From Nannobrachium achirus (Eukaryota; Chordata; Actinopteri; Myctophiformes; Myctophidae): a stretch of DNA of 64,000 bases. Positions within the stretch are counted from its first letter, which is position 1. Every line of letters begins with the position of its first letter. Below, piece after piece: positions 57-63,998 of this stretch. The position numbers were made by a program, and so were the translations under genes. The notes beneath the pieces are model-generated. The model searched no databases and was not told the origin of the DNA. It worked only from the letters and a program-made list of their open reading frames with translations. The stretch covers positions 15,710,352 through 15,774,351 of the forward strand of contig OY997645.1 in NCBI GenBank assembly GCA_963921795.1. The letters run 5' to 3'.

Positions 57-494
57 CATGGGTCTTCAACAGGGGGTCTGGGACCCCTAGGGGGTCCTCA
101 GAGTTACTACAGTGGGTCCTCCAAAACTTTGAGTGATAGAAACCTTTTTTTCTCATTTTTTATAATAACCACTTGAACCCTAGCGTCCATAAGAACTTTA
201 GCCAAAAAAAGCTCACAACGCCTGAGCTTGTAGATCGGCTATTTTCAGCAAAGAGGTTTGGTGTAGAGGGGAAAAAAGAGCCGACTAAGTACAGAGTAAA
301 AGGTCAAATGTATTAGGTAATGACGGCTCAAATGGTTAAATATCTGATAACACAAATTGACTTGAATCCAAAATACTCTGATTGTGCTGTCAAACGATGA
401 AACTATATGGAATCTATGAAAATGTTGTGGGGGTCCCTGCTTCATCTCTCTCTCAACTAAGGGGTCCTTGGCCTGGAAACGTTGAAGACCCCTG
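57..494. mobile_element. hAT element, CAGGGGTCTTCAAC family
   Basis: The 438-bp element is flanked by the perfect 8-bp duplication TTCTAGCT at 49-56 and 495-502. The right end is GTTGAAGACCCCTG and the left end CATGGGTCTTCAAC. The interior carries a shortened palindrome (204-246, GCTCACAACGCCTGAGCTTG). It has no coding capacity. Confidence 0.9.
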
Positions 495-840
495 TTCTAG
501 CTGGTCTTTTTAAGCATCAGAACAGTGTTCACCCTTCATACTATTATACTCAGCATTGGTCACATGCAGCACCGTCCCTGCAGCTTGTTGGTGATCACAC
601 ACCGGCCTCGACCTCCTCACCAGCCTATGTATGATTGAACAATCTTATACCTGGGTATCTTAACTCATGGCCTTGAATCGGTCTTTGTTATGTTCACAAA
701 ATAACTGTATCTCAGGCTCTGCTTTTAGCGGGTTACTGATCTCAGATTGTGTGACACGCTTCCGCAGATGAATCTGTATTATTGTATGACAGGAGCCGAG
801 TCACACCGCAGAACTGAATGCGATGCCATTGCATTCACCA

Positions 841-1345
841 TTAAATCGTTGCGACCATCAGGTCGCAGTTACTGCTGTTTGTCAGTCAGTCAGTCACACG
901 TCACACTTTTGCCCTTCTCATATATCCGCCACCGTTGCCTCGATCCATGCCAAAATTTGCGCACACACTCCTTGGCTGCCAAACCACTACCTCCACCCCC
1001 CATTTCTCACATGACCCTCTTCTAGCGCCACCATGAGGCCGATTCTTGCAAAACACATTTTTGGACACTGCTCCTACAAATTTCCCCCTAAAATCACGCA
1101 AATCGGTACACAGTATGTCTCCACTCATGTCATCAACATGGATCTGTCCGATATAGCACCACCATCAGGGCGATTTTTCAAACACATTTTTGGACACTGC
1201 TTCTACAGATTTTGCCCTAAAATCAAGCAAAGCGATACACAGCATCTCTACAGTCATGTCATCAACATGGATCTGTCCCATTTCCCATATTCCCTCCTGA
1301 TTGGCTACCATTGCCTTCTAAAATTTGTGTAGGGAGTCTTACTGG
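841..1345 (+). repeat. Dispersed repeat (GGTCGCA...CATCAACATGGATCTGTCC)
   Basis: CCATCAGGTCGCAGTTACTG, CACATTTTTGGACACTGCTC and GTCATCAACATGGATCTGTC recur at 17562-17945 and 50690-50925. Two tandem units of the TTTTTGGACACTGCT block are present here. It ends near AGGGAGTCTTACTGG. Confidence 0.65.
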
Positions 1346-1759
1346 TTAAATCTGATGAAAGTGGCTGACTGAACATAACATGTTCGCTCCCATTATATAT
1401 AATAATTGTGAGGGGGGTTCTTCTGGTGCATATCTCGCACTCATGTTGGAGTTCTTTTGCTACAGTTGGGATAGACTCTCGTCTGTAGCTCACATTCCTC
1501 TGCGGGCTCTTTCACATTAAAAGGAGCTCATCCTCTCCCGATCCGTCACAGTTACACATCACACTCAATTTGGGATTTGTGTGACAGTAATGCATGTGCT
1601 GTCAAGCTCCTTCATAGAACACAGAATTGTGAACGTTCTCCTCCGTTCCTGGAAAACTGGTTTGCCGAGTACGTATGATTAGTCTACTCGCGTGGTTAGG
1701 TTTTCGACCCACGGCTGCACAGTGATTATTTGATGATTTGACGATCCGTTGCTCGCACT

Positions 1760-2336
1760 CAGGGGCGTCACAAGGGAGAGAAAAGTGGGACTGAATTACT
1801 AGGGCCCAAGGTGGAGGGGCCTTAATTGTTGATTGCATACTTTAGCTATTGAAAAATGGCAGATCTACATGCTTGCTTGTAGATTTGCTATTTTTGAAAA
1901 GTCGTGAAAATGTGTGCAAATCTTTCAATATAAGCGAACATTTGTAACTCAAAGTTTCCTTCTGGGGGCTCCCTGGTACTAAATATTTTGAGATGGGGGT
2001 CCGTGGCCAAATACATATCATTTTGGGCATCCTTCACATGAAGAAGTTTGAGCACCACTGACATAGAAACACCTTAGAAGGATTTGAAATATTCAAAGAC
2101 TTTCACAAAGATTTTCAAGATTTTTCAAAAATAGCAGATCTACAAGCTTGCACTCAGTGCCGCACTGTGAGCTTGTACATATGCTATTGTTCAATAGTTC
2201 AAGCACACAATAATGCATAATAATAATGCGTTCCCAGTCTAATTGGGTTAAACCCCATCCCCCTATGAAGAACATTCATGGGGGGCCCGCAGTGAATCCT
2301 TGTACCCAGGGCCCAGAATTTGGTGCGACACCCCTG
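1760..2336. mobile_element. hAT element, CAGGGGYGTC family
   Basis: Ends are CAGGGGCGTCACAAGG and GTGCGACACCCCTG. Flanks are CTCGCACT (1752-1759) and CATGCACT (2337-2344), 6 of 8 matching, so this is an old insertion. It contains two palindrome-derived pieces (about 1850-1900 and 2121-2197) and the block GGGGGTCCGTGGCCAAATAC, which is shared with the TTAA elements at 23354, 39333 and 47009. Confidence 0.75.
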
Positions 2337-2344
2337 CATGCACT

Positions 2345-2985: not shown

Positions 2986-3511
2986 GCCGAAAATAGCTGA
3001 CCTACAACGCCTACAACGAGTCGCATCCACAGTGCGTTGTGAGCTTGCAGGTCACATAAATTGGGCGTAAGGGGGATGGGTATGTTTGTGTTAATGTGCC
3101 CGCAGTATTTTACCACACATTGGACTCCTTGATGCTTAATTTGTTCGATGTTGCCCCTAAAATTATTAAACTGGATGGATGGATGATGGATGGAGGCTGT
3201 TCTATTGAAAAATCTCAGTGATAGACCATAAACAACCCGAAGAATTTAATGTGAATTTATTTGTTTCTGTTAAGTAAGTTAAACATAAAAAAGAAATAAA
3301 TCAACGTGAATAAATAATTTTTCGGACTGTGCACTACAAAATTAAACGATTGAACCAGTATAGTTCATTTTGAACGTGACCTTGATCTACCTCTTATAAA
3401 GCGTGTACTTGCACAACAATGCCTTCTGTCTCTTTTCCCCCCTCACAGTGTGATTCTGCACGTGACCGTCTGAACACCGTTTTGTGTCCCATGTTTTTTT
3501 TTTTTCTCCAG

Positions 3512-3706: not shown

Positions 3707-3788
3707 GTGAGGGTGAGAATAATATGTTCCCCGTGTTGTTGTTGTCAGCAGGGACGTGCAGAGAATGGTAGGCGCCGTACAGACATTT

Positions 3789-4026
3789 GCGTGAAACATC
3801 TTCTCCGTATCGTCTGAGAATGGCCACTGGGGGCGCCGTACTAATGCATTGTCAATGGAAGGTTGTTTGGTGTTTTGTCGTTGCCGTGTCTCTTGGCCAA
3901 AAGACAGGCTGTGGTTGAGCTTGAGACACGGCAACGACAAAAAACCAAACAACCTTCCATTGACAATGCATTAGTACGGCGCCCCCAGTGGCCATTCTCA
4001 GACGATACGGAGAAGATGTTTCACGC
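3789..4026. repeat. Inverted repeat, 104-bp arms, one mismatch
   Basis: Arms 3789-3892 and 3923-4026 are complementary at 103 of 104 positions around a 30-bp spacer. The arms contain GGCCACTGGGGGCGCCGTAC and its inverse. It lies inside the hAT at 3749-4446 and is absent from the two other family members. Confidence 0.95.
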
Positions 4027-4068
4027 ATGTGTGTGAGTCCAGCCTAAAAGTGCCTTTTGGTGAAAATA

Positions 4069-4145
4069 TTGAAAATAGCAGACCTCCAAGCTCACAACGC
4101 GTCACGCTGCGATGCGTTGTGAGCTTGGAGGTCGGCTATTTTCAA
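4069..4145. repeat. Palindrome module, CTCCAAG variant
   Basis: TTGAAAATAGC...GCTATTTTCAA encloses arms GACCTCCAAGCTCACAACGC and its inverse. The CTCC/GGAG change from the common form is present in both arms. Inside the hAT at 3749-4446. Confidence 0.92.
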
Positions 4146-4449
4146 TGCTTGACATCACACTGAACGAAGCATAATCAAGTCAATACTGGAGATGTGGCGT
4201 AACAACATGGATTTCTACACAGTGAGGGCAATTATTTCAACATAAGATGCTGCATTCAAGTTCAGGAGAGTTTGGACAAGGCAATTCTCTTGAATGCTGC
4301 CTTCATGTATGGCATGGAAAGAGGGCATTTGCATTTCTTCTATCGCAGTAAAAACTGCATTCATGGTCAGGAGAGGGCACTTTTTACAGACTGATAAAAG
4401 GGCAGGGGCTCAAGCCCCCTTTGATGTCTATGTGTGCACGTGCCTGGTT

Positions 4450-5691: not shown

Positions 5692-6071
5692 CATGGGTCT
5701 TCAACAAGGGGTCCGCGACCCCTAGGGGGTCCTCAGAATTACTACAGGGGGTCCTACAAATCTTTGAGTGAAAGAAACTTTTTTTTCTCCTTTTTTATAA
5801 TAACCACTTGAACCCTAGCATCCTTATTCTGAGAACTTTATCCAAAAATAGCAGATAGCAGATCTAAAATAGCAGATCTACAAGCTCACAACGCCTCGAC
5901 CTCAAGTGGTTAAATATCTGAAAACACAAATTGACATGAATCCAAAATACACTGAGGATTGTGCTGTCAAACAATTAAACTATATGTAATCTATGAACAG
6001 GTTGTGGGGGTCCCTGCTTCATCTCTCTCTCAACTAAGGGGTCCTTGGCCTGAAAACGTTGAAGACCCCTG
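5692..6071. mobile_element. hAT element, CAGGGGTCTTCAAC family, with paralogous empty site
   Basis: The ends are CATGGGTCTTCAAC and GTTGAAGACCCCTG, as in the copy at 57-494. Only CAATGA is duplicated, slightly outside the element. The locus has an uninterrupted paralogue at 7755-7960, which shows the element was inserted. Inside is only the left arm of the palindrome, with its start partly duplicated (AGCAGATAGCAGATCTAAAA). Confidence 0.8.
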
Positions 6072-7738: not shown

Positions 7739-8248
7739 TATTATGCTGGGGAGTGGGGACCCCCTGGGACCCCCTCGAGGACCCCTGGGGGTCCCCAAAC
7801 CCCACTTTGAGAACCAGTGGCTTACGGAAACCCAAGCTCGTCAACGATGATAGATGTTCCACATTGTCATGTAAATTGACATGACACTGAGATTAATCAA
7901 ATCTTCCTGTCCCAGTTGCTGCCATTCCTTTCATGTCAACATGTCACTACAGTACATACTGATAAATGTATTTACGTCTCTATACCCAAGATATATGGAA
8001 ATGTACCGTATTTCTATTGCAAGTAATTAGACTATAACATAATATTGGGTTAACCACATGAACCCTAGTATCCATATTCTGTCACGATAGACATTCATCG
8101 GAAATAGCATGATCTTGTGAGCTTGTAGAACAGCCGTTTTTTTTTTCTTTTTTTTTTTTTCTTAAGCAAATCAATTTAATGTACAGGTACTGAGGGAAAA
8201 GGAGGGGAGAAACTATTGACCACTGAGGGACACCGTCAACTGAAGAAT

Positions 8249-8524
8249 ATTGTCGTTGTCGGGTGGAAAACTTGTATGTCCAGAACCGTTTGTTTTGTAT
8301 TTGTCATTTAAAAAAATATTTAAAATAGTGAAAATAGCTAATCTACAAGCACACAACGCCTCACGGTGCGAGGTCTGCTGTAGATCTGCTATTTTCACTT
8401 GTTTTGTGCAACAGTCTTGTATGATGGAGAGCTTTACTTTACTTCTACTACAAAATCGGTGTGCAGACTTTTTCTTTCTTTTATTGAGCTTTACTTTACT
8501 AATATACAAATTTGAAACTTACTG
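8249..8524. mobile_element. TIR element, CGTCGTTGTCGGGTGGAAA family, right end unclear
   Basis: ATTGTCGTTGTCGGGTGGAA marks the left end and a palindrome lies at 8327-8399. After TTGAAACTTACTGAATC the family match fades. Confidence 0.6.
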
Positions 8525-11500
8525 AATCTTAAGTGCTTTTGAGGATATTATTTATAAACTGTTTCAGTGTTCTTATCCTCTAGACTACATTTTATTAGTA
8601 TCATGCAATATGATAGCCTATAGATAAGTGGTTGTCAACTGCTTCAGGTTGCAACCCCAAATAATGTGATCATGGACTCAGTAGCCAAAAGGTTATTCAC
8701 TGCAACATCTGTGTTTGTTTAGAAATTCTTTATTTTCTTTTTGAATATACCGTACCAGTGCAGTGTTACAACCAGATGTAACATTTATTGTGCTCCACAA
8801 AACAATTAGGAAGTTAGGGATCATTTAATTCCATGCTTATGCAAAGATGAGCTCTGAGGAAAAAAAGGGGTTCAGAAAATAAATCATCAGCGCTTAGAAT
8901 CCATTTAATTAGACAGCTCACATACAGTACACTGATGTAGTATTGAATGTGCTGCACAGAAATAAAATAAAGTATGACAAACTCACAAAGAAACGTCATA
9001 CTAAATTTCACTTCCAATTAAACTGTTAATGTTTAAATGTTTTAACTCATATCAGAATGTTGAAAATGTGTGAAATTCCTAATCACTCGCCCCCCAACCA
9101 GCCAGCTATCCCACAATGCCTTGCGTATTAAATAGTGTACAAACTTCACGCTGTGATTGGCCGGGGGCAAATCCTTATTTTCCAGGTGTGTGGGGAGTGG
9201 GAGAGGGATTTGAGCGGTGGGGGGCTCTGGCAGGATACTTAGTAGCCTAACTGTGACAGTAATGACATGTAAAAGTCAATTTACATAAATAGTGTTTTTT
9301 TAAATATGCATACATTTATTCAAATGGTTTTCTCATCATCATCATCATAGTAGTCTCATCACCCCTTCAAACAGATGTACAGTACATTTTGGGCTCAAGC
9401 AAACCAGCAACTACAGAGAAACATTTCAGTACATAACTAAAGTTGAGGGACAGGGGAATGATGGAAGTCAATTAAACCAATTTTCTTTCCACCTCTCAGC
9501 ATCTGGATGATGTCTCCATTGTACTGTGTTAGGATCCACAGTCAGTGTCTTCCTCCAACAATGCTGTGAACCTCCAGAACTTCTTCATAATAATAACTAT
9601 GTTACGTGATCAAATTATTACGGTCAGGCTGTTTCCTCACAGTCTGATATACCAGCGTGCCAAACAATAGTGGGAATGTGTTCTTACTGCTATGTTTGTT
9701 TACAAAAAGCCAGGTATATCTCACTGGGCCACCAGCGATAAGACCAGTGTTAGCCAAGCTATTGCACTTGTAACTGTTCTGTTCTATTGTGCTGCAATTG
9801 TTGTGTTGTGCCAAGTATTGAGACTGTTGCAAGGTTCTGAGATTGATTACTCTTGTATGTATGTGAAGCTGGAAAAGTACAACAGTGAGTTCTCCGATGT
9901 ACGACTTTGTAATGGCCTGATACTTTACAGACAGAATGAAGATTTAAAGAAAACGTCTGAAGGGGCACACACACTGGCTGCGGACGGCACACGTCAAAAC
10001 AGCCTCTGCCCACACCAGCAGCAACAACATACCCACACCAGCAGCGTTGGACGTGTGCAGGCGCGCGTTCACACCCCGCTCCAACCAGGTGTTGCCGCAT
10101 GGTGACAATGTCCACTGATGCAATTCCAAAGAATACAATTTGGGACAATTTGAACAGTTTTTCATTCAAGTGAATGCCAGACATGTAAATCCACCATAGA
10201 GTCACTGTTGAGACCCAACATATATCTGATTTGCTTGTGTCAGGGCACAAATATTGCAGAGAAATTCTTCTATCTTCTATAATTAATAGGTCAGTAATAA
10301 ATTAGTAATGTTACTCTTGTAGGACACGTTCACAACATTGTTTCAAAATACATTAATTTGTCATGGTACTGCAGCCTGAATATTTTTCATCCAGCCGCGA
10401 GTTTTTCCTCGAGCGCTTGTAGTGCTGAGCTTTTAATAGTACCCAGCATAGGTATCAATGCTCTTAAACCTTGCTGAAAGTTACAGCACAGCTGCTTTTA
10501 GTGAGCCCACTTTGGAATGCTTTGAAATAATGGCTAGAATACTGCTGTAGGTGGAGAGCCCTCTAGTTGACCGTTTTAGCACAGACCTTCCAACATACTG
10601 TACCTACCACATGACTAGAGCCAAGCAAACACTGCGAGATGCCGCTGAATCACCGTTGCCAGATTTTGCACCAGAAACAAGCAGCCAGGTTTACAAACAC
10701 AAAGCAACTAGTACTATTTGAAAATACCATCGACAAGCTCACAACGCAATGCAATACGCTATATATCGGCTATAAAAAAATGCAAATAAATATCAAATAA
10801 ATATAAAACATATATTATATTAATATTTTGGACAAACTGAATGACAAACAAATGTTTTTGCAACATTCTAAATAGGCCTACACAAATTGCTATGGGTGTC
10901 CCCTTGGCACAAAATATTTTCAGATGTCCTTGACATGAAAATGTTTGAGGACCGCTGGCCCAAGCCCAAATAAACAACTACACTTTGGGGAAAAACGCAA
11001 CCCGCAACTTCTAATATTTACAAGTGACTTTACAGAAGAAAAATAAATAAATAAAGCCCAAAGTCACTATTAATATCCAGACCTGGTAACACTGAGCGGA
11101 ATCCACATTCAGCCACTTTAATTCTCAGTCTTAGTTTAAGTATCAGTTACGGTAATGTAACATTCCTAATGTTTGTGACTTATCCTATTCTACCCCGGTT
11201 TTGGACCAGGGTCTCCTGTGTTAGTGCTAAAGGATTGACTCTGAGGATGACCGATTAGGTTGAAACTCATCCGCAGCTCTGCCTGGGTGAGGTAAATGAA
11301 ACAGACATTTATTGAGTGCTGGCTGTCTACTTCTTATCAAGCTAATAGCGCCTGCCTGCTTGCTCAGGTGAGAAATTGAATTTTGACTTACGTTCAAAAT
11401 TTGTGTCGAACCAGAAACAGGACTGTGTCAAAGGTCATGTCCAACCTAGGCACAGGATCTTAATTTCTCAATTATAGAAGAGATGGGAGACCAAATGACA

Positions 11501-11680: not shown

Positions 11681-11681
11681 A

Positions 11682-16100: not shown

Positions 16101-16347
16101 ATTATCGTTGTTGGAAACCTTGTATGTACAAAACAGTTCCCTTTTTGGTATTATTTTAAAAACATCTAAAAAAAAGTGAAAATAGCGTTGCATCGCGACA
16201 TGTTGAGAGCTTGTAGATCTGCTTTTTTTCCCACTACTTTTGTGTGACAATCTTGTATGATGAAGTAGTGCATAGATTTACGGGAAGAAGAAAAAGAAAA
16301 ACATTATCATTTGAAACGTGGAGATACAAGGTTTCTGCCTGACAACA
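16101..16347. mobile_element. TIR element, CGTCGTTGTCGGGTGGAAA family
   Basis: ATTATCGTTGTTGGAAACC at the left and ACAAGGTTTCTGCCTGACAA at the right, with a damaged palindrome at 16175-16230. Confidence 0.65.
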
Positions 16348-16690: not shown

Positions 16691-16995
16691 CAGTGGTGGA
16701 AGAGGTAGCAATAACACTAGGTAGGAATACTCTGTAAATGTCCCTAAAAAAATCTACTTACGGTACCAAAGTAAGTGTCATTTTTTAAAGTTTCTCAACC
16801 CGTTTTTGAAAATGGCAGATCTACATGCTCACAAAGCGTCACATCGTGGAACGTTGTGAACTTGTAGATTGATTGGCTACAATAGCCGACGTGTAAAATA
16901 TGGTATAAAACAGTTCTTGAGTAACTATGTTTTGTAATAATAATGTAAATCTGTAAAATAAAGTAAATAACTGATGCTTTCAAATAAGTAGTGGA

Positions 16996-17945: not shown

Positions 17946-18303
17946 GCCTGTGTTCCGATGGGTCCAATGTAGTTATTTATAATTTAGTCACAAGCAGATT
18001 GTTAATAGTTTTCATTGGTTAAATATTCCTCGAGCCCACAGACCACTTTTACTGTCAGAATGTTTCAAAATTGGCGATACAAGCTCACAACGCATCACCG
18101 CAACGTGTTGTGAGCTTGTAGATCGGCCATTTTTGCTACTTTTGTATGGCACTGTAGAATGACGACGTAGGGGGTTAATTTACGCAAGAAAACACAAAAA
18201 GTTGAAATATGGAGAAGCTTTCTGTCCAAAAGCAACACTATGCTGAAACATTGTGGTGTTATTGCAGCTCAAAGCAACAAACCTCTCTCTTTTTGTTCCA
18301 CAG

Positions 18304-21000: not shown

Positions 21001-21092
21001 CAAAAGAAGCAAAAATAGCCGATCTACAAGCTCAAAACGCATCGCAGCGCGATGCATTTTGAGCTTGTAGATCTGCTATTTTTGCTTCTTTT
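21001..21092. repeat. Palindrome module, longest symmetric copy
   Basis: The symmetry extends over 92 bp, CAAAAGAAGCAAAAATAGC on the left against its exact inverse on the right. The arm change CTCAAAAC/TTTTGAG is present on both sides. Confidence 0.93.
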
Positions 21093-22428: not shown

Positions 22429-22808
22429 CAGGGACGTGCGGAGAATGTTAGAGATGCAGGGGCTGAAATTTCTAAAAGGGCCTTTTGGTGAAAAATAGCC
22501 GACTTCCAAGCTCACAACGCGTCGCAGCACGACGCGTTGTGAGCTTGGAGGTCAGCAATTTTCGATGCTTGATTTCAACACATTTTCTTGATTTTCGTGC
22601 TTGTTAAGATGCTGCATTCAAGTTCAGGAGAGTTTGTGTAAGGCAATTCTCTAGAATGCCGCCTCCAGGTATGCCTTGGAAATAGGGCATTTGGGTTTCT
22701 TTCACTATAGAGAAAACTGCATTCATGGTCTGGAGAGGGCACTTTTTACAGACGGGTAAAAGGGCAGAGGCATAAGCCCCCTTTGATGTCTATGTGTGCA
22801 CGTGCCTG
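22429..22808. mobile_element. hAT element, CAGGGACGTGC family
   Basis: The 380-bp element runs from CAGGGACGTGCGGAGAATG to GTGCACGTGCCTG with perfect 8-bp duplications CTCGACTC (22421-22428 and 22809-22816). It represents the family without the extra inverted repeat seen at 3749-4446. Palindrome at 22490-22563. Confidence 0.92.
22490..22563. repeat. Palindrome module, CTCCAAG-type variant
   Basis: ACTTCCAAGCTCACAACGCG pairs with CGCGTTGTGAGCTTGGAGGT. Inside the hAT at 22429-22808. Confidence 0.9.
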
Positions 22809-23353: not shown

Positions 23354-23961
23354 GCCCATTTAGAACGGGTACACATTATTGTGTATCATTATTTTATGCT
23401 TTAACTATTGAAAAATAGCAGATATACAAGCTCACAGCGCTGCAGCGAGTGCCGCGCTGCGAGCTTGTAGATCTGCTATTTTAGAAAATTCGTGAAAATT
23501 TGAATTTTGACACGATTCTATAAGTGTCTTTTGAATCCTTCTAAGATTTTTTTAAAAACCTATGTTTCTATGTCAGCAATCTGGCCAGCCATCGTCAAAG
23601 AAAAGGTCCTTTTCACTTAACTGGAGCTCAGTTAGTCTGTTCTTGAGAGACTACTTTGTCAGTGGTTCTCAAACCTTTTCATGTGAAGGACCCCCAAAAT
23701 GATATTTATTTGGCCACGGACCCCCCCATCTCAAAATATTTAGTTCCAGGGACCACCCCCAGAAGAAAAATTTGAGTTCCAAACGTTCGCTTTGAAAATA
23801 CATAATATTCAAAGATTTGCACACATTTTCACGACTTTTTTCAAAAATAGCAGATCTACAAGCTCGCAGCGCGGCAGTCGGTGCCGCGCTGTGAGCTTGT
23901 ATATCTGCTATTTTTCACCGGTTAAAGCATTCAATAATTCTAGGCCCTAAATGGGCTAGGT
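23354..23961. mobile_element. Two-palindrome element, third copy
   Basis: Bounded by TAGCCCATTTAGAAC and CCCTAAATGGGCTA, with palindromes at about 23407-23482 and 23841-23917. It carries the uninterrupted target site for the MITE seen at 39887. Confidence 0.78.
23841..23917. repeat. Palindrome module, GCAGCGCGGC variant
   Basis: CAAAAATAGCAGATCTACAA, then GCTCGCAGCGCGGCA in the left arm and GTGCCGCGCTGTGAGC in the right. Same variant at 39374-39449, 39802-39880 and 47471-47549. Confidence 0.9.
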
Positions 23962-23964: not shown

Positions 23965-25035
23965 TTTTGATTCATTATTCCATTGAGCGCTGTGCTCTGA
24001 TCCAAGGATCTGTCTTGACAACGTTGCTCTAATATCACGCTTTTCCGCCCGCGAGTCTTATTATCTCATGGATGTAATTTTAATAAAGTGAGAGATATTA
24101 TAATTTCCTCAGTTTCACTACCTGCTTAAATTGCCTGGGGCATCCTGTGGGAGTATTTCTTGGACAGGCAATCTGTGCTAAAAGTTGTACCTTGACACGA
24201 CCCCGGAGTGCATCTCGGCTGCTCCCAGCTGCCTGTTATAAGCTTTTCTAAGCCACTTATCTGGTCCACTTTACTCATAGAGCACTCTTCTATTTTTTTT
24301 CTCCTAGCGTTGTGCACAGCGCTCTCTCCTCAGCTTTCTGCAGTATTCATTTTAAAATGATGTTACAATGCAACTACTACAGTGAAACGGTTTAGTCAAT
24401 TATTTGATAAACAGAAGATTGATTAAATGTTTTTTTTTTTATCCAACTAAACCAATTGGATAATTGGTTCAGTGATGTATCGATTTAATGGCTATGTGCA
24501 ATTTCGAACAAGAGTAATGTGAATGTCTGTATTTCTTACTTATTTTTTCTATATTGTTAGAATTTTTGTACTTTATTCATTTCGTTTTTCATGGGGCACA
24601 CTGTTGGGGGGCATTTGTCTTTCTTTCTAATACTTTTTTGCAAACATTTTCCTCATTTGATCATTTAGTCTTCCTTTCATGATCTAAAACTACAGTCGAA
24701 TGAGGTGTGGTTAGTGAATCCATGGCCGCTGGTGTTTAGTTGTACATATACTAGATAATATAGATGCAGTAAAATCCTCCGTGTTGAATGCATGGATGTA
24801 GGGTGGAATGGAGTTTAGTACCGGTGGAAGTTTGTCTGGCAACTAAGACTAATTGTACGATGGTGTAGCTTGCCAAAAAGACTCATTGACTCATTGTTGT
24901 TTGCACAAATGCCTTCTAAACCAATAGTTCTCACACTTGAAGTGACGTGCTGTTAGCTTGTGGATCTGGTATTATTGAATAGCCAACGCAAAAATCTAAA
25001 ATGACTCAGATGCTTTCCCCGTTTTAACGGGTTAA
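23965..25035. other. Intron C, no clear feature
   Basis: AT-rich, with half a palindrome module near 24950-24990 only. Confidence 0.4.
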
Positions 25036-25045: not shown

Positions 25046-25520
25046 CAGGGTTCTTCAACGTTTTCAGGCCAAAGACCCCGTATAGCAGAGAGAGATGAAG
25101 CAGGGACCCCCACAACCTGTTCATAGATTCCATACAGTTTCATCGTTTGACGGCACAATCACCAGTGTATTTTGGATTCATGTCAATGTGTGTTTTCAGA
25201 TATTTAACCACTTGAACCGTCAACACTTAATAAACTTGACCTTTCACTCCGTACTTAGTCTGCTCTTTTTCCCCTCTACACCAAACCTCTTTGCCGAAAA
25301 TAGCCGATCAACAAACTCACAACGCCTCACAGCGCGTGCAATTGTGAGCTTATAGATCTGCTATTTTTGGCTTAAGTTCTCCGAATATGGACGTTAGGGT
25401 TCAATTAGTTAATATAAAAAAGGAGAAAAAAAGGTTTCTATCACACAAAGATTTGGAGGACCCCCTGTAGTAACTCTGAGGACCCCCTAGGGGTCCCGGA
25501 CCCCCTGTTGAAGACCTCTG
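25046..25520. mobile_element. hAT element, CAGGGGTCTTCAAC family, inverted
   Basis: It starts CAGGGTTCTTCAAC and ends GTTGAAGACCTCTG. Perfect 8-bp duplications TTTTAAGC lie at 25038-25045 and 25521-25528. Palindrome copy at about 25296-25371. Confidence 0.9.
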
Positions 25521-38803: not shown

Positions 38804-39801
38804 TCGTTACGTGATCTGGCAAGTTGTCAAATATCCTGTATTTTTTCCCTGTATTTATAGCACAGTGTCTATGACACTATAGTGGCAGGGGGAGAGAGGG
38901 GGATTCTCAGGCCAACGCCAGCAGCATTCACGCCTGCTAGCTGCCAACTAGAGTACAAGCTCAGGCCTATGTATCGCTGCCCACTGAGCAGCTCTTTTTT
39001 TTAAGCAGGAGGGGGCCCTGAGTTGGTTGTCGATTGAGGAGAGACACATTCTGCTTTGCTTTCATGACACACATTTTCCCAGATGGTGGGCAAGTTTTAC
39101 CAGAGACCTGCACAACAGGAATGATATTAATATACACAACTATTTCCCTAGGGACGAGCACAGAATATTGTTGTGTGGTTTAGGTCAAACCCCAGGAGGG
39201 CTTATACGATATAAATCCCATTATGTTACAGAGGCCACTATTATAATTTTATTAGCATAAAAACAATCAGATCATAAAGTATAAGAATTAAAAACAAAAG
39301 AAACCACTGTGCAGAAGAAAACAACAACAACATTAACCCATTTAGGCCTAGAATTATTGAATGCTTTAACCAGTGAAAAATAGCAGATATACAAGCTCAC
39401 AGCGCGGCACCGAGTGCCGCGCTGCGAGCTTGTATATCTGCATTTTTTTTTTACAGTTGTGAAAATGTGTGCAAATCTTTGAATATATGTATTTTCAAAG
39501 CGAACATTTGTAACTCAAATTTTGCTTCTGGGGGGGTCCCTGGAACTAAATATTTTGAAATGGGGGTCCGTGGCCAAATACATATCATTTTGGGGGTCCT
39601 TCACATGAAAAGGTTTGAGAACCACTGACATAGTAGTCTCTCAAGAACAGACTAACTGAGCTCCAGTTAAGTGAAAAGGACTTTTTCTTTGACGATGGCT
39701 GGCCAGATTGCTGACATAGAAACATAGGTTTTTCAAAAAATCTTAGAAGGATTCAAAAGACACTTATAGAATCGGGTCAAAATTCTAATTTTCACGATTT
39801 T

Positions 39802-39880
39802 TCAAAAATAGCAGATCTACAAGCTCGCAGCGCGGCACTCGGTGCCGCGCTGTGAGGTTGTATATATATCTGCTATTTTT
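39802..39880. repeat. Palindrome module, GCAGCGCGGC variant
   Basis: CGCAGCGCGGCACTCGGTGC forms the centre, with AAAAATAGCAGATCTACAAG and its inverse outside. The right arm carries a short TA expansion. Confidence 0.88.
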
Positions 39881-44695: not shown

Positions 44696-45109
44696 CAGGG
44701 GTCTTCAATGTTTTCAGCCCCCACAACCTTATCATAGATTCCATATAGTTTCATTGTTTGGCAGCAAATCATCAGTGTATTTTGGATTCATGTCAATTTG
44801 TGTTTTCAGATATTTAATCTCTTGAACCGTCAACTTTAATTAACTTGACCTTTCACTCTGTACTTAGTCTGCTCTTTTTCCCCTCTACTCCAAAGCTCCT
44901 TGCCGAAAACAGCCGATCTACCAGCTCACAACGCCTCGCAGTGCAAGGCGTTGTGAGCTTGTAGATCGGCTATTTTTGGCTGCAGTTCTCAGAATATGGA
45001 CACTAGGGTTCAAGTTGTTAATATAAAAAGGATTGGAAGATTTGGAGGACCCCCTATAGTAACTCTGAGGAACCCCTAGGTGTCCCGGACCCCCTGCTGA
45101 AGACCCCTG
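44696..45109. mobile_element. hAT element, CAGGGGTCTTCAAC family, with 35-bp flanking repeats
   Basis: It starts CAGGGGTCTTCAATG and ends CTGAAGACCCCTG. A nearly complete palindrome is at 44901-44980. A direct repeat of 35 bp, matching at 32 positions, abuts both ends exactly (44661-44695 and 45110-45144, starting CTATAGGGTGTTATG). That is far longer than the 8 bp of hAT integration. Confidence 0.85.
44901..44980. repeat. Palindrome module inside a CAGGGGTCTTCAAC hAT
   Basis: ACAACGCCTCGCAGTGCAAG and GGCGTTGTGAGCTTGTAGAT are the central halves; outer ends are GCCGAAAACAGC and GCTATTTTTGGC. Confidence 0.88.
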
Positions 45110-45954
45110 CTATAGGGTGTTATGTTATCATTATGCATCTAAATACAATCTATATTGGTCTTTCAGAATTGATTTTGTTTTCTTTATTTAACTTTATTTG
45201 AGTCTGTCGAGAGACATTCTCTCAGGGTGACTGATAAAGAAAGGCCTCAGCTGGCATCATACCCACTACCCACCATGCATTGCACAAGCATAGGGAGCCG
45301 GGTTGAGCTAAGTTCAGGTATAACATTATTACATTGTGTTTAGGCTTCAGTTTAGCCATGGCTGGCGTGTGGTTACGAGTTACGACCCAACTGAAGATCA
45401 AGTATCAAGACGAACAATTGAATTGTAATGTTGGTCTTCTACTTTTACATGGCACCGGGGTGACTGTGAGTGTGTTCGATAAAGCGTGGTGGTTACATTC
45501 AGTTACATAACTCAATCCATGGACGGATCAGATTATAGGGAGCGGTCATCATAACAGGCCCAGGCCCCACCAGGGGTTAGGACGGAGGCGTTATGTTGAG
45601 GAAAAGCAGGGGACGGCTAAAGATAAGGTACCATTTAACCACTTGAACCGCAGCATCCCAATTCTGGGGGAAATACTAGAAGATCGAGAAGCTCACAACG
45701 ATCACAACGAGCTTGTCGATCTGCTATTTTCAGCAAATATATTTAGTGTCGTGCGAAAACAGAAAAGTCACTAGTATCGAGCCCTGGGGCTATAAAATGA
45801 CAATGCCAGGCTGCAGGTGGTTAATATAATATAACAGATGTAAACCTATGAAATATCACATGTCATAGGTGGATGGGCGGGCATGGATTGAGATGCCCTG
45901 ATCTGAAATTAGATTAATCTACACACAATTATTCAGGGTAAAAGTGGGATTAAT

Positions 45955-46215
45955 ATTGTCGTTGTTGGGTGAAAACCTTGTATGTCCAAACCGTTCGTTT
46001 TGCATTTTTCATTTTAAAAATGATTCAAACTAGTGAAAACAGCCGATCTACAAGCACACAACGCCTTGCGGTGCGAGGCGTTGTGTGCTTGTAGATCTGC
46101 TGTTTGCATTACTTTTGTGCGACGGCCTTGTATGATGAAGCAGGGCTTTACTTTGCTAAAGAACATACAAATTTGAAACTTGGAGGTACAAGATTTCCAC
46201 CCGACAACGACGATA
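45955..46215. mobile_element. TIR element, CGTCGTTGTCGGGTGGAAA family
   Basis: The left end ATTGTCGTTGTTGGGTGAAA and right end TTTCCACCCGACAACGACGA are inverted. The centre is the palindrome at 46033-46108 with flanks TAGTGAAAA and GCATTACTTTTGTGCGAC. A TA target is possible but not proven. Confidence 0.8.
46033..46108. repeat. Palindrome module, GCACACAAC variant
   Basis: Left arm CAAGCACACAACGCC and right arm GGCGTTGTGTGCTTG both differ from the common CTCAC/GTGAG form. Inside the TIR element at 45955-46215. Confidence 0.9.
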
Positions 46216-47008: not shown

Positions 47009-47588
47009 TTAACCCATTTAGGCCTAGGATTATTGACTGCTTAAACTATTGAAAATAGCAGATATACAAGCTAGCGCAGCACCGAGTGCCGCCTTGCAAG
47101 CTCATAGATCTGCTATTTTTGAAAAATCGTGAACATTAGAATTTTTACCCGATTCTACAAGTGTCTTTTGAATCCTCCTAAGTTTTTTGTTGTTGTTGAA
47201 AAACCTATGTTTCTATAATGTCAGCAATCTGGCCAGCCATCGTCAAAGAAAAGATCCTTTTCACTTAACAGTTAACAGCTCAGTTAGTCTGATCTTGAGT
47301 GTTCTTGAGAGACTACTATGTCAGTGGTTCTCAAACCTTTTCATGTAAAAAAATATTCATATCTCAAAATATTATAGTTCCAAGGACCACCCAGAAGCAA
47401 AATTTGAGTTACAAATGTTCGCTCTAAAAATACATATATTCAAAGATTTGCACACATTTTCATGACCTTTTCAAAAATAGTAGATCTACAAGCTCGCAGC
47501 GCGGCACTCGGTGCCGCGCTGTGAGCTTGTATATCTGCTATTTTTCAACAGTTAAAGCAGTCAATAATTCTAGACCTAAATGGGTTAA
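47009..47588. mobile_element. TTAA-flanked element with two palindromes
   Basis: Ends TTAACCCATTTAGGCCTAG and CTAGACCTAAATGGGTTAA are inverted repeats with TTAA. One palindrome copy sits near each end (47053-47125 and 47471-47549). The middle has CAGTGGTTCTCAAACC, a MER5-like hAT-type end. Confidence 0.82.
47471..47549. repeat. Palindrome module, GCAGCGCGGC variant
   Basis: AGCTCGCAGCGCGGCACTCG and GTGCCGCGCTGTGAGCTTGT; flanks TTTTCAAAAATAG and CTATTTTTCAA. Confidence 0.9.
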
Positions 47589-49390: not shown

Positions 49391-49439
49391 TCACATTGGG
49401 ACGTGTTGTGAGCTTGTAGATCTGCTATTTTCATTGGAA

Positions 49440-55474: not shown

Positions 55475-55699
55475 AACTACAGCTTCACACAAAAGCACTC
55501 AAAGTAGCAGATCTACAAGCTCAAACCCTTTGACCTTGTATTTTTGGCTAAAGGCCATGGTACAAAATGAGGGTTGTCTGAGCAAGGGCATCAACAGTAG
55601 GGTGTCAACAGCTATACAGGCTAGCATAACATTCATTAGGGCAACACTATACAGTAGTTTTTGTTCACCTTTCTCTTCCATTAATAATGCTACATACTA

Positions 55700-56752: not shown

Positions 56753-57256
56753 CAGGGGTCTTCAACAGGGGGTCCGGGACCCCTAGGGGGTCCTTAGAGT
56801 TACTACAGGGGGGCTGCCAAATCCTTGTGTGATAGGATAATTATTTTAAATTAACAACTTGAACCCTCGTGTCCCTATTCCGAGGAGAACTTTAGCCAAA
56901 AATAGCAGATCTACAAGCTCTCAACGCCTTGCGCTGCGAGGCGTTGAAAGCTTTTAGGTCAGCTATTTTTGGCAAATAGGTTTGGTGTAGAGGTAAAAAA
57001 AAAAAGAGCAGACCAAGTACCGAGTGAAAGATCAAGTTTACAAAATATCGTCGATTTAAGTGCTTAAATGTCAGAAAATACACATTAACATGAATCCAAC
57101 ATAGACTGATGACAGTGCTGTCAAACAAGTCTATGAATCTATCTATGAAACCGATGAAAATCTGCATCACACATTTATACAATATGTAGAGAGGGTCCCT
57201 GCTGTATCTCTCTCTCAGCTAAGGGGTCCTTGGCTTGAAAAGGTTAAAGACCCCTG
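56753..57256. mobile_element. hAT element, CAGGGGTCTTCAAC family
   Basis: Perfect 8-bp duplications GGCTAATT flank it at 56745-56752 and 57257-57264. Both ends are intact (CAGGGGTCTTCAAC and TTAAAGACCCCTG). Palindrome copy at 56894-56973. Confidence 0.9.
56894..56973. repeat. Palindrome module with TCAACG change on both arms
   Basis: GCCAAAAATAGC/GCTATTTTTGGC outside; the left arm has TCTCAACGCC and the right GGCGTTGAAAG, sharing TCAACG where most copies have ACAACG. Confidence 0.88.
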
Positions 57257-57687: not shown

Positions 57688-57955
57688 TATTGTCGCAGCC
57701 GTCGGGCAGAAGTATGTATGTCCATATTTCTGACCTTGTTGATCTTCTATTTTTGCTTAAATAATCATTTAAAAAAAAGATGAAAAAGTGATTAAGTCTG
57801 TTTGTGGATTCATACATAGTTATTTAACCAATGAAAAATGTTATACCAACTGCATTGGAGCCATTGGAACAAAGTTTTTTATTTTATTTTTTTCATTTCC
57901 TGAAAAGTTATCATTTTGGACATACAAGCTTTCCACCCGACACCGAGGATAAGGT
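57688..57955. mobile_element. TIR element, CGTCGTTGTCGGGTGGAAA family, old copy
   Basis: Left ATTGTCGCAGCCGTCGGGCA and right CTTTCCACCCGACACCGAGG are inverted ends, with ATGTATGTCC and GGACATACAAG just inside. Only half of the palindrome survives (GTTGATCTTCTATTTTTGC). Confidence 0.65.
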
Positions 57956-58734: not shown

Positions 58735-58922
58735 AATCGTCGCTGTCGGCTGGAAACCTAATATGTCCAAAACTGTTACTTTTTACTTTTTCAAATAAAA
58801 AAATTGCAAAAGTAGCAGAACGTGTCGCAAAGCGACGCGTTTCAAGCTTGTGGATCTACTACTTTTGATGTTTTTGTGTGTCGCTCTAGTATGATCAAGT
58901 AGGACGTTCAATTATATATTAT
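58735..58922. mobile_element. TIR element, CGTCGTTGTCGGGTGGAAA family, truncated
   Basis: It starts TCGTCGCTGTCGGCTGGAAA. It has a variant palindrome at 58806-58868 and lacks the right terminus, being followed at once by the next copy in the same orientation. Confidence 0.7.
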
Positions 58923-59195
58923 ATATCGTCGTTGTCGGGTGAAAACCTTGTATGTCCATAACCGTTCGTTTTGCATTTATCACTTTAAAAATGATTTAAA
59001 CTAGTGAAAACAGCCGTCAGCCGATCTATAAGCACTCAACGCCTCGCACCGCGAGGCGTTGAGTGCTTGTAGATCTGCTGTTTTCACTACTTTTGTGCGA
59101 CGCCCTTGTATGATGAAGCAGGGCTTTGCTTCACAAAAAAACATACAAATACATACAAAGTGAATATGAAGATAAGTGGTTTCTGCCCGACAGCA
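58923..59195. mobile_element. TIR element, CGTCGTTGTCGGGTGGAAA family
   Basis: Left end ATCGTCGTTGTCGGGTGAAA and right end GGTTTCTGCCCGACAGC, with the palindrome at 59001-59090 in the centre. Directly follows a second, shorter member (58735-58922). Confidence 0.8.
59001..59090. repeat. Palindrome module, GCACTCAAC variant
   Basis: AAGCACTCAACGCCTCGC and GCGAGGCGTTGAGTGCTT are exact inverses and differ together from the sister copy at 46033-46108. A short duplication (CAGCCGTCAGCCG) breaks the left outer arm. Confidence 0.92.
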
Positions 59196-60180: not shown

Positions 60181-60308
60181 ATGTCCTACTTTGTTGTACA
60201 AGAGAGTTGCACAAAAGTAGCAAAAATAGCCAATCTGCAAGCCCACAACGCGTTGCAATATGACGCTTTGTGAGGTGATTATATATATTTTAATAAAAGT
60301 CAAACTGG

Positions 60309-61204: not shown

Positions 61205-61757
61205 CAGGGGCGTCAATTGGGTGTGGCAGGGATATGCAGCTGCCATACCCTGGGTCCAGGGGGGGGAATAAAAGTTACTTTTAATTAAATATAAATCCAT
61301 GAATGTCTCTTTGTCTATCTGCGCTGGTCATTATGTTGTTAAATTACAGTAAAATAACTACAAATGTAAAATTTAACAAAATGGTCACTTTAACAAGGTA
61401 TTATAATTATATTCTCTACACTTGTATTCTCCCCAGCTTGACAAAATGGTATAGTCCCAGGTTCCGCAGGTCAGCTGCACAGGTGCAATGCATTATTGTT
61501 AATTGTGGCACGTTTACTAACATAGAAACCTGTGTAAAAAACAGACAAAACTCGTTATTTTTTTTCCAGACACATTGTGAAAATAGCCAATCTACCGTAC
61601 ATGCTCACAAGTCACAACGCCTCGCAGCGCAAGGCGTTGTGAGCATGTAGATCTGCTATTTTCACAATAGAACCGTGTTATACAAAATGTAATGCCTCTT
61701 TTCCATGAGGACTCCCATCTTTGCCATACCCTAGCTTTTGCTGAACTGACGCCACTG
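61205..61757. mobile_element. hAT element, CAGNGGNGTCA family, with palindrome module
   Basis: Ends CAGGGGCGTCAATTGG and TGAACTGACGCCACTG are flanked by the perfect duplication CTTGACTA (61197-61204 and 61758-61765). It carries the palindrome at 61574-61667, which its relative at 58102-58486 lacks. Confidence 0.9.
61574..61667. repeat. Palindrome module, CATGCTCAC variant
   Basis: ATTGTGAAAATAGC/GCTATTTTCACAAT outside; CATGCTCAC and GTGAGCATG inside carry the same A-to-T-type change on both arms. The left arm has a small insertion. Confidence 0.9.
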
Positions 61758-61769
61758 CTTGACTAGACT

Positions 61770-63295
61770 CTGCTGCCGCTGCGGGCAGCGGTGCAGCACG
61801 TTGCAGCAGGGTTCTCTCCTTGACTCTCTTCCCCAGTAGCAGCGTCCCTGGGCTGGGTTGTGCAGCCGTTGACTGTCCCAGTTATTTCATGTGTGCACCT
61901 GGAAATACAGATTGATGTACTGTAGGTCTCAAGCTGCTGTAATACTGAAGCAAGCTTGAGTATAGGTTGCACTGATCACCTGACGGGCTTTATTTAGTGG
62001 TTATGGTTAACCTGAACTCATTTCATAATATGTGACTTATCTTGAACACGCAAACGTCATTTGATGTGCATTATTACCATTAAGTCAGGTCAGTTAGTCA
62101 GGTCTGTCTGTCTGTCTGTAAACATTTGTTTGATTGAATCACTTACAGATCATCTAAGCAGCACATGATGAACAATGTTGTGCAGCTATTCCTTCCTCAT
62201 CAAGCACAATAACTATGGCGGCGTATTAGTGCGAAAAAACAAACTCTGTTGGGAGCAGGGCAATTTTCTGACATTAAACTAAAATGTCGGATAATTCTAA
62301 CTTAAAAGAAATCACAGAATTGCGACATTAATGTGAGAGATTTCTGAGAAAAATCGACCAAATTTCGGACTACTTAAGCTCACAGATTTTCCACATTAAT
62401 CTTGCAAATGTGCGTGTTATAAACACACACATTTCTGATGAAATAAACTCAGAAATGTAGGCTATATTTAAGGAGGAGTATTCGTATCACTTTGTTTGGA
62501 TCATAGCCTAAACATTCGAAAGAATTAGTCGTACAATAACAACATTATGGTTCTTATTCAATTCAATTCAATTCAATTCAATACAATACAATACAATACA
62601 ATACAATACAATACAATTTAGCTTTATTGGCATGAAAAGCATACACTTATATGAGAAGTGTCAAATAAAAACTGAAATGATGATAATTAAAAAGGGAATA
62701 AAATGTGTGTAAACAGGGCTGTGTCACATTGCAATTTAGAAAAACCCTATCTTACATAACCACAACAATGTTAATTTGCTCTTAGGAATAGTTATATAAT
62801 ATGTAGGCAAGGTTAGCTTGATATAAAGCTTTTGAAGTAAATAGCAGCACTTTTTCAAGGTTTTGCTGTCACTTTGTGTAGAACATTTAAGACGAATGGC
62901 AGCAATTAGAATCGCAATTATTCATTATTTGAATAATTGGAAAGCTCGCCTCCAAATTCTAAATGTCTTTAAAAGTTATTGCTCTGTTCGTGTACAGCAG
63001 TTCTATGTAGAGGTCACCTCGGTGCAGATACGTGTAGTGCAGGAATACACTTCATGATTCGTAGACCTTAAGGTGGTTGTATTCCATTGGACATTGGACA
63101 TACTGTACAGTACTTGTCCTTCCCCTGAAAAGGCTTGTGTGTAGAGCTGGCCATGAATGAACACAGACTAGGCAAGTACAGTAGATGACATCTGGTTCAT
63201 TGTCTTGTCCCTGACCGTGGTTCATGGTGACTGAGAGAGCAGCACGACACTATCCATCTTAGGTGTATGAAACTGCACTATACAGTATGTGTGAC
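61770..63295. other. Intron D, mostly unrecognised
   Basis: Apart from the pentanucleotide tract at 62549 I see nothing definite. At 63299 TTAAAGGTCCATGAAAC may start another TTAA MITE whose far end I could not place. Confidence 0.4.
62549..62617. repeat. (ATTCA)n then (ATACA)n tract
   Basis: Two pentanucleotide blocks followed by TTTAGCTTTATTGGCATGA, a string often found at LINE 3' ends in antisense orientation. Confidence 0.9.
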
Positions 63296-63927
63296 TACTT
63301 AAAGGTCCATGAAACACAAAATCACTTTTTCTATAAATATATATTATATCAATGAGTCACTTGTGATAGGGAGCAGTGATATGGTTCAATTTGCCCATAG
63401 GGTTGGGGATTCAGAGCTTTCTGCTGTCACTGTAGCTATTTCTGTGTACTTCCAGTTTCTAGGTCAAAAAGAAATCTTTGGCGCCACTCATTAAATATTA
63501 GCTATCACTGTTCTATTGTGTAATGTGACGTAGGCATATCTAATTAATATTAACGTTTGTTTAACATAGAGTTGTATCAAGGGGGGGCGTGGTTTCATTC
63601 TGCCCTCGTTGTGTTGTTCAGAGCATAGACTGTAGAGCTGTGTCGCAGTGGGTCACTTGTTGCCATTTGTATTTCGGGAACACATTTTAAAACCAGCCAT
63701 TGGAGGTGTAAAAACAAAAGTATAAAGCTTCGGCAACTCCATGTTCTATAACCAGGTAAAATGGGCAAGTATTTTACAAACAAGCTGTCTGAGCTTTTAT
63801 CCATGGACTAACTTTCTCCAGCTCTGGACTGTTTACCACGGAACCGAAGAAGAAGGGACGCTAAGCTATCGCTGATAGCTATTTTCTGTGTAGTGTGTGC
63901 GCGCACACACACACAACGTCCACACAC

Positions 63928-63998
63928 GAAAAATAGCAGATCTACAAGCTCACAACGCGTAGCGAAACCGACGCGTTGTGAGCTTGTATATCAGCTAC
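63928..63998. repeat. Palindrome module at the window edge
   Basis: AAAAATAGCAGATCTACAAG, CTCACAACGCG and CGCGTTGTGAGCTTGTATAT. It may continue past the window. Confidence 0.88.

What the first reader, a model, noticed from the sequence alone, without database searches (positions are those of the whole stretch)
204..63998. A roughly 75-bp palindrome module recurs about 40 times and sits inside unrelated transposon families
Seen: AAAATAGC-GATCTACAAGCTCACAACGC and its inverse form two-armed palindromes about 25 times, plus 15-20 halves or decayed copies, roughly one per 1.5 kb. They lie inside CAGGGGTCTTCAAC hATs (57, 25046, 44696, 56753), CAGGGACGTGC hATs (3749, 22429, 27995), a CAGNGGNGTCA hAT (61205), GTGGAAAAAGTACT hATs (11891, 16691), CGTCGTTGTCGGG TIR elements (45955, 58923) and TTAA elements with one near each end (23354, 39333, 47009). 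Apart from the palindrome, these families share no sequence that I can see. Inference: the palindrome is a module that moves into, or is exchanged among, other elements. I do not recognise it as described.
Basis: partly seen in the sequence, partly recalled or inferred. Interest (0 to 1): 0.87.

Follow-up and report, generated by a model that had tools for sequence, protein, structure and literature searches.

The report
Shared hairpin cassette in fish transposons
A hairpin-forming DNA palindrome of about 75 letters recurs very many times in this genome inside several different kinds of transposon; it appears to have been built into each family when the family began, to be inherited with it, and to be cut out again by copying errors at the hairpin, rather than jumping on its own.

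Summary
The arm 20-mer has 41 hits in the window at up to 3 mismatches (0 in 100 shuffles) and 54,361 exact copies in the 1.66-Gb genome (control 0). I count 41 modules in the window, 20 two-armed and 21 single-armed; 222 kb sampled elsewhere extrapolates to 0.8-0.95 million.

The hosts include hATs with exact 8-bp target duplications, TTAA elements and a CGTCGTTGTCGGG element. Some sharing is descent or nesting: a TTAA-ended MITE lineage carries the palindrome, and the CAGGGGTCTTCAAC hAT holds such a MITE. One cassette (palindrome plus flank) occurs in three different transposons, with ends close to the palindrome.

Ongoing independent hopping is not supported. F1, F3 and F6 yield 107, 81 and 22 module-less junctions (control 0), heterogeneous and deletion-like; in F1 and F3, not F6, the longest-microhomology product is the commonest. 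Arm variants track the host family (78% against 23% shuffled), and the arms covary between families. Why the palindrome stays conserved is inferred. Nine searches of an open-access library listed no description; repeat-consensus libraries could not be searched.

The parts
2131..2187 (.). two-armed palindrome, F0 (TTAA clade)
4075..4139 (.). two-armed palindrome, F6 variant GACCTCC in both arms
16812..16876 (.). two-armed palindrome, decayed
18068..18130 (.). two-armed palindrome, clade G flank
21015..21079 (.). two-armed palindrome; C to A in both arms; palindrome runs on about 11 nt outwards
22495..22559 (.). two-armed palindrome, F6
23415..23479 (.). two-armed palindrome, F0
23847..23911 (.). 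two-armed palindrome, F0
25300..25364 (.). two-armed palindrome, F2
28307..28363 (.). two-armed palindrome, F6, shortened centre
34326..34390 (.). two-armed palindrome, F2, outer part of one arm lost
39380..39444 (.). two-armed palindrome, F0
44909..44973 (.). two-armed palindrome, F2
45676..45727 (.). two-armed palindrome in a TTAACCACTTGAACC element
46039..46103 (.). two-armed palindrome, F3 variant CACACAACGC in both arms
47055..47116 (.). two-armed palindrome near the left end of the TTAA element
47477..47541 (.). two-armed palindrome near the right end of the TTAA element
56902..56966 (.). two-armed palindrome, F2, A to T in both arms
59017..59081 (.). two-armed palindrome, F3, A to T in both arms
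63933..63998 (.). two-armed palindrome at the window end
217..242 (-). single arm (centre deleted), F2 hAT
3034..3059 (-). single arm
5869..5894 (+). single arm, F2 hAT copy
8112..8137 (-). single arm
8334..8359 (+). single arm, F3
10722..10747 (+). single arm
16200..16225 (-). single arm, F3
24947..24972 (-). single arm
26401..26426 (-). single arm, weak
29497..29522 (-). single arm inside TTAA element 29419-29573
29628..29653 (-). single arm
33131..33156 (+). single arm, F0
33332..33357 (-). single arm, F0
37894..37919 (-). single arm, F3
39808..39833 (+). arm, F0; the second arm is altered
49403..49428 (-). single arm next to a simple repeat
55504..55529 (+). single arm
57725..57750 (-). 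single arm, weak
58837..58862 (-). single arm, grouped with F3
60226..60251 (+). single arm, clade G flank
61634..61659 (-). arm, F1-type CATGC variant; the second arm is rearranged
57..494 (+). host: CAGGGGTCTTCAAC hAT (F2), TSD TTCTAGCT
25046..25520 (-). host: F2 hAT with TTAACCACTTGAACC-type ends on both sides of the palindrome
34078..34451 (-). host: F2 hAT copy (alignable part)
44696..45109 (-). host: F2 hAT
56753..57256 (+). host: F2 hAT
3749..4446 (+). host: CAGGGACGTGC hAT (F6), TSD GTTGTCAG
22429..22808 (+). host: F6 hAT copy
27995..28440 (-). host: F6 hAT copy
45955..46214 (+). host: CGTCGTTGTCGGG-type TIR element (F3)
58923..59195 (+). host: F3 element copy (alignable part)
47009..47588 (+). 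host: TTAA-ended element with a palindrome near each end (F0)
29419..29573 (+). complete TTAA...TTAA MITE, ends CCACTTAAACC / GGTTTGAGTGG, half palindrome
61205..61757 (-). host: CAGGGGCGTCA hAT (F1''), TSD CTTGACTA, carries the F1 cassette

Best explanation
The module is the conserved core of a hairpin-forming cassette built into the founders of several non-autonomous DNA-transposon families, and then multiplied by each family's own transposase. Shown: it lies in TTAA-ended MITEs, four hAT families (CAGGGGTCTTCAAC, CAGGGACGTGC, CAGTGGTTCTC, CAGGGGCGTCA), a CGTCGTTGTCGGG family and a GTCGAC-rich element. Shown: in the F2 hAT it sits inside a nested TTAA-ended MITE. Shown: one cassette of about 112 bp is common to two hAT families, and most of it to a third transposon, with ends near the palindrome. 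Shown: variants follow families, and copies lose it by many different deletions. Inferred: passage between families happened rarely, when families were founded, through nesting and through template switching or gap repair at the hairpin, not through a transposase of its own. Inferred: active lineages kept it palindromic, either because the dyad or hairpin helps their mobilisation (as a transposase or host-factor site) or because founders arose from copies whose arms had been recopied from each other.
For: Abundance and reality. Nesting: F2 copies carry TTAACCACTTGAACC-type ends on both sides of the palindrome. Such ends (up to 3 mismatches) lie within 200 bp of 32 of 154 modules (shuffle mean 2.9) and on both sides of 11 of 154 (shuffle mean 0.00); 9 of these 11 are F2, the other two are at 29497 and 45676. 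A free-standing TTAA...TTAA copy is at 29419-29573. Chimeras. Founder state: the F2 lacking-insert pattern gives 2 hits against 4 in the control, while 4,901 exact F2 flank 27-mers exist. Deletions: 81 (F3), 107 (F1) and 22 (F6) module-less junctions, control 0. By my count of printed rows the commonest F3 junction (16 of 81) is the only 4-nt-microhomology product among 124 possible, and the commonest F1 junction (25 of the 100 listed) is the only 5-nt one among 114. F3 flank trees mix deleted and full copies. Vertical inheritance: arm sequence alone predicts the flank-defined family for 78% of 164 arms, against 23% mean and 37% maximum in 30 label shuffles. Pairing kept between families: on all 42 ungapped 65-bp modules 90.6% of cells pair, covariation 0.230 against 0.116 shuffled and 0.060 or less when slid.
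Against: No donor-recipient event was caught in the act. I saw no nested TSD in F1, F6 or F3. The commonest deletion does not dominate in F6 (its two 3-nt products occur once each among 22), and several of the 16 flush F3 copies are copies of one event (L039/L040 and L050/L053 share their surroundings). 0 symmetric arm changes were seen in 25 F3 copies. The pooled test gave 8 against 3.0 expected (23 of 1000 permutations), but 4 of the 8 come from one copy that probably does not belong to F2. So neither frequent arm recopying nor a binding function is demonstrated. Ends near the palindrome rest on two contrasts only. If flanks diverge fast enough, all families could be ordinary descendants of one ancestor.
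Confidence: 0.55

Rival explanations
1. Pure common descent: one ancient TTAA (piggyBac-like) MITE carried the palindrome as an essential cis element, all hosts are its diverged descendants or contain it nested, and only the palindrome and TIRs stay recognisable.
For: TTAACCACTT[GT]AACC-type ends occur near modules in groups 0, 1, 2, 3, 4, 5, 9 and 33. Flanks of F2, L004, F9, F5 and F7 are homologous, and so are those of F3 with several isolated modules (m107b and m124b match the clade G profile at 0 of 200 shuffles). F0 carries one module about 43 bp inside each TTAA end.
Against: F1 and F6 flanks do not match the clade G profile (51 of 200 shuffles as good for each). The same F1 cassette sits in three transposons with unrelated ends, which needs nesting or recombination.
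Confidence: 0.25
2. Functional hairpin or dyad: the palindrome is bound by a transposase or host factor, like the palindromic internal repeat of piggyBac, and selection keeps it.
For: Compensatory arm changes between families. Arms vary less than flanks in F3 (11/874 against 26/819 rare changes, p=0.008) and F2 (4/141 against 29/177, p=6e-5, only 4 intact copies). Position near both ends of F0. piggyBac precedent (PMC7351741, passages).
Against: Reduced variation in copies presumed dead is not what selection on founders predicts. In F3 it comes from the left arm (1/424); the right arm (10/450) resembles the flank. Altered or deleted modules are common (13 of 40 F3, 16 of 20 F2). No protein partner is known.
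Confidence: 0.2
3. The module is a tiny mobile element of its own that inserts into other transposons.
For: Presence in unrelated hosts. The commonest F3 module-less form looks like a flush TA or ACTA site.
Against: That form is the only 4-nt-microhomology deletion product and occurs with flanks of different F3 subfamilies. The other module-less forms are heterogeneous. I found no constant target duplication. Variants follow the host family.
Confidence: 0.05

Closest known systems
[quoted passage not shown] passages seen)
   Same: TTAA ends and a palindrome just inside each end in F0
   Different: Here the palindrome is about 75-90 bp, begins about 43 bp from the end and also occurs in hAT and other elements; sequences were not compared, and no transposase was found or tested
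Teleost 'Angel' inverted-repeat MITEs (recalled; the original paper was not available to me)
   Same: Short non-coding fish elements with strong secondary structure, as I recall
   Different: Sequence not compared; here one palindrome is shared by elements with several kinds of ends
Nested and chimeric MITEs / non-autonomous hATs (general knowledge)
   Same: One element carried inside another and co-amplified; internal sequence shared between elements with different ends
   Different: The shared part is one hairpin with covarying arms, at an estimated 0.8-0.95 million modules in one genome
Palindrome-stimulated deletion between short direct repeats in bacteria and yeast (general knowledge)
   Same: Loss of the hairpin between bracketing microhomologies in F1 and F3
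   Different: Seen here as a natural record in a eukaryote genome; mechanism inferred from end products only

Membership tests
Self-mobile MITE or foldback element (the module itself) | constant target-site duplication at the module edges | tested here: not met
   Where the palindrome runs on past the edges the flanks are inverted, not direct, repeats; no clean empty sites in F1, F3, F6
Self-mobile MITE or foldback element (the module itself) | terminal inverted repeats | tested here: met
   The whole module is an inverted repeat
hAT MITE (hosts F1, F1'', F2, F6) | 8-bp TSD and CAG-type TIR | tested here: met
   Exact 8-bp TSDs at 57 (F2), 3749 (F6) and 61205 (F1''); F1 copy in L010, whose module is mostly deleted, by eye, TSD GCCTAAGG
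hAT MITE (hosts F1, F1'', F2, F6) | mobilised by a hAT transposase | not tested
   no autonomous partner was sought
piggyBac-like TTAA element (F0, CCACTT clade) | TTAA at both ends | tested here: met
   47009-47588 and 29419-29573; both-side ends at 11 of 154 modules
piggyBac-like TTAA element (F0, CCACTT clade) | piggyBac transposase relative (against Kolobok, which also uses TTAA) | not tested
   no transposase was sought
piggyBac-like TTAA element (F0, CCACTT clade) | palindromic-like internal repeat at bp 17-33 of the TIR | tested here: inconclusive
   The palindrome is longer and begins about 43 bp from TTAA (definition); I did not look for another, shorter one
Structured RNA family (Rfam) | match at the curated threshold | tested here: not met
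   0 matches in the window

The most novel reading that the evidence does not exclude
The palindrome is a portable cis element that different transposon superfamilies acquire by recombination because its hairpin or dyad helps any of them to amplify (for example by recruiting one host factor or promoting gap repair), making it a parasite-of-parasites module spread by recombination instead of transposition.
Probability: 0.15. Interest if true: 0.88.

Novelty: new variant of a known kind. Interest (0 to 1): 0.6.

Why it matters
A hairpin cassette that may exist in nearly a million copies in one genome, shared by hAT, TTAA and other elements, shows how non-autonomous transposons can swap parts across superfamilies. 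It also gives a natural experiment on hairpins: thousands of near-identical palindromes in known flanks, many deleted at predictable short repeats, which lets hairpin-driven mutation be measured in a germ line. It warns repeat annotators that a shared core does not mean shared ancestry of the ends.

Tried and rejected
A clean-insertion reading of the 61205 hAT was considered, because the exact 21-mer at its right junction is unique in the genome. A DNA search found copies 94-96% identical over 319 of 368 bases (39 besides the window's own; 40 of 3066 candidates scored), and the five copies fetched from that family carry the cassette at the same place: four with both edges, L122 with only its left part. 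So the cassette is a family trait and the insertion reading was dropped.
The flush F3 junction as an ancestral empty site was dropped because it is the top microhomology product and occurs in different subfamilies.
Copies e41669, e52727 and L024:2865 of F2 were considered as empty sites; each also lacks flank, so each is a deletion. Among 29 flank-bounded copies of F1, F2, F3 and F6 in the window and samples none was a clean empty site.
Frequent arm-to-arm recopying in dead copies is not clearly seen.
F1 and F6 as members of clade G: not supported.
Exact patterns gave 0 matches in viral contigs (20-mer) and prokaryote contigs (25 fixed bases). No RNA family at gathering threshold and no tRNA or tmRNA in the window.
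Papers: nine searches (two returned no paper) listed nothing that describes this cassette; only listings were seen, except passages of PMC7351741.
The count of filled F1 sites was never obtained (ten tries, machine busy).
A first covariation count used 34 of the 42 ungapped modules; several of the 8 that I had dropped were badly paired, so I repeated it on all 42; the result stands with slightly lower figures.

Full report
What was checked. The arm sequence occurs 41 times in the window at up to 3 mismatches against 0 in 100 dinucleotide shuffles. With a 26-column arm pattern (25 fixed positions, up to 7 mismatches) there are 61 arms, forming 20 two-armed and 21 single-armed modules. The window lies in a 1.66-Gb, 564-contig assembly that holds 54,361 exact copies of the 20-mer; the reversed-pattern control is 0. 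In 24 ten-kilobase samples at fixed positions (222,220 bases without N) there are 58 two-armed and 69 single-armed modules, which extrapolates to about 0.95 million modules, or 0.80 million if the repeat-dense sample L026 is left out.

Anatomy. The unit is AAAATAGC, one variable base, a 20-bp arm, a 13-nt centre that is itself mostly self-complementary, and the inverse. The five copies folded as single strands each form one hairpin (-31 to -37 kcal/mol, z -9.5 to -13.5). On all 42 ungapped 65-bp modules, 90.6% of cells pair, 15 of 31 pairs have double-sided changes, and the covariation score is 0.230 against 0.116 in shuffles (0 of 500 reach it) and 0.060 or less when the partner is slid. A first count on 34 of these 42 gave 92.0% and 0.234; several of the 8 that I had left out were badly paired. 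The tool warns that related sequences can exceed shuffles; the number of families behind these 42 is small. Families differ by paired changes: CATGC (F1), GCACAC (F3), GACCTCC (F6), CAGCGC with a GGCACC.GAGTGCC centre (F0). In several families the palindrome runs on into family-specific sequence (F1 ATTGTG, F3 TAGTG, F7 TTTGCCA).

Hosts and shared descent. Exact 8-bp duplications flank the elements at 57, 3749 and 61205. TTAA flanks 47009-47588 and 29419-29573. Within 200 bp of a module, a TTAACCACTT[GT]A[AG]CC-like end (up to 3 mismatches) occurs for 32 of 154 modules (shuffle mean 2.9), and on both sides for 11 of 154 (0.00); 9 of the 11 are F2. In the CAGGGGTCTTCAAC hAT (F2) both ends flank the palindrome, so I read a TTAA MITE nested in that hAT. 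A comparison of 37 flanks that I picked, 666 pairs, linked F2, L004, F9, F5 and F7 into one group, and F3 with several isolated modules into another. A profile of the second group (clade G) accepted m107 and m124 (0 of 200 shuffles as good) but not F1 or F6 (51 of 200 each). So at least four flank lineages remain unlinked by these tests.

Chimeras. The F1 palindrome with its left flank lies in a CAGTGGTTCTC hAT (TSD GCCTAAGG in an L010 copy whose module is mostly deleted, by eye), in an element with GTCGAC-rich ends, flanked by TA by eye (L011, L017, L020, L027), and in the CAGGGGCGTCA hAT family at 61205-61757. F1 and the CAGGGGCGTCA family share about 112 bp, from AGGCATTAC (38 nt left of the 65-bp module) to CACAAT (9 nt right), and no homology beyond is visible in the alignment. 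F1 and the GTCGAC element share from 14-25 nt left of the module (blastn ends against the L001 copy, whose own left flank is shortened; L027 shares about 40 nt by eye) to about 200 nt right.

No independent hopping. For four families I searched the genome for copies without the module or its insert. F2: 2 hits against 4 in the control, although 4,901 exact F2 flank 27-mers exist. F3: 81 junctions, F1: 107, F6: 22, control 0 in each. They are not one empty site but many different joins. Of 124 possible exact F3 deletion products of at most 35 nt, one has 4 nt of microhomology, and it is the commonest junction seen (16 of 81 by my count). Of 114 F1 products one has 5 nt, and it is the commonest (25 of the 100 rows printed); 9 more rows are one of the two 3-nt products and 1 the other. 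F6 does not show this: its two 3-nt products occur once each among 22. The rows are not all independent events: L039 and L040, and L050 and L053, share their surroundings, and three of the 25 F1 rows lie within 0.1 Mb on C18. The sixteen flush F3 copies, four other deleted and eight full ones gave a tree in which deleted and full copies are mixed (supports are modest). The likely process is slippage across a hairpin between bracketing short repeats; this is inference from products.

State of copies sampled by flank. Of 40 F3 copies chosen by a 29-mer outside the palindrome (first 40 of the 100 listed of 5,655), 27 have at most 3 gaps in the module and 13 have more; by eye one copy, L082, holds an insertion at the centre and one, L087, is cut off from its left flank. 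Of 20 F2 copies chosen by a 27-mer (first 20 of the 100 listed of 4,901), 4 are intact, 15 have 4-60 gaps and 1 more than 60; by eye, six of the 20 (L098, L099, L102, L103, L107, L111) do not show the usual F2 left flank. Rare non-CpG changes in 25 intact F3 copies: arms 11/874, left flank 26/819 (p=0.008), but left arm 1/424 and right arm 10/450, so the difference is uneven. In 4 intact F2 copies: arms 4/141, flanks 29/177 (p=6e-5). An earlier comparison was biased because copies had been found by their arms.

Vertical inheritance against exchange. Leaving one element out at a time, arm sequence alone assigns 78% of 164 arms (F0, F1, F2, F3, F6; other groups left out) to the family defined by masked flanks; shuffled labels give 23% on average and 37% at most in 30 shuffles. 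F2 is the weakest (15 of 28 right). So modules do not mix freely between families. Symmetric changes in both arms of one copy: 8 against 3.0 expected over F0-F3 (23 of 1000 permutations), 4 of the 8 in a single doubtful F2 member; 0 in 25 F3 copies; 0 in 4 F2 copies. I infer that the covariation arose mainly in the lineages that founded families.

Mechanism. The best account is a hairpin cassette taken up by founders of transposon families, by nesting (F2) or by recombination close to the hairpin (F1 trio), multiplied by the host's transposase, inherited vertically, and lost by hairpin deletions. Why founders keep it palindromic is open: use as a dyad or hairpin site, as in the palindromic-like internal repeat of piggyBac that a dimer of the transposase's cysteine-rich domain binds (PMC7351741, passages), or recent arm recopying. 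Neither is shown.

Novelty. No paper describing such a cassette appeared in nine searches of the open-access library. Individual families may well be in repeat-consensus libraries, which I could not search. I rate it a new variant of a known kind (nested and chimeric non-autonomous transposons), unusual for its abundance, its spread across superfamilies and its covarying arms.

Noticed in passing
window 19559-19885 (+): Open frame with an immunoglobulin I-set domain match (Pfam E 8e-06), contactin-like by eye; the window may lie in introns of a cell-adhesion gene.
   Followed up: partly
window 35639-37471 (-): 610-codon open frame with a reverse-transcriptase domain (Pfam E 1.3e-36), a LINE-type element by eye.
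   Followed up: partly
L026 3000-7500: Repeating blocks about 1.7 kb apart, each carrying several palindromes, so the palindrome also sits in a tandem, satellite-like repeat.
   Followed up: no
L098 1-156: An F2 copy whose left half looks like the inverted other end of the same hAT, joined at the palindrome centre (by eye); perhaps a fold-back product.
   Followed up: no
L075 1-171: An F3 copy with several scrambled repeats of the outer part of an arm (by eye); perhaps repeated template switching in the hairpin.
   Followed up: no
L082 1-171: An F3 copy with an unrelated insertion at the centre of the palindrome (by eye).
   Followed up: no
L026 1428-1492 with flanks: One F2 copy has identical sequence just outside both arms (CGCTTTGCCAAAAATAGC), unlike its family (by eye); a candidate for arm-to-arm copying.
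   Followed up: no
window 47320-47400: A hAT-type end (CAGTGGTTCTCAAACC) lies inside the TTAA element between its two palindromes, so F0 elements look composite.
   Followed up: no
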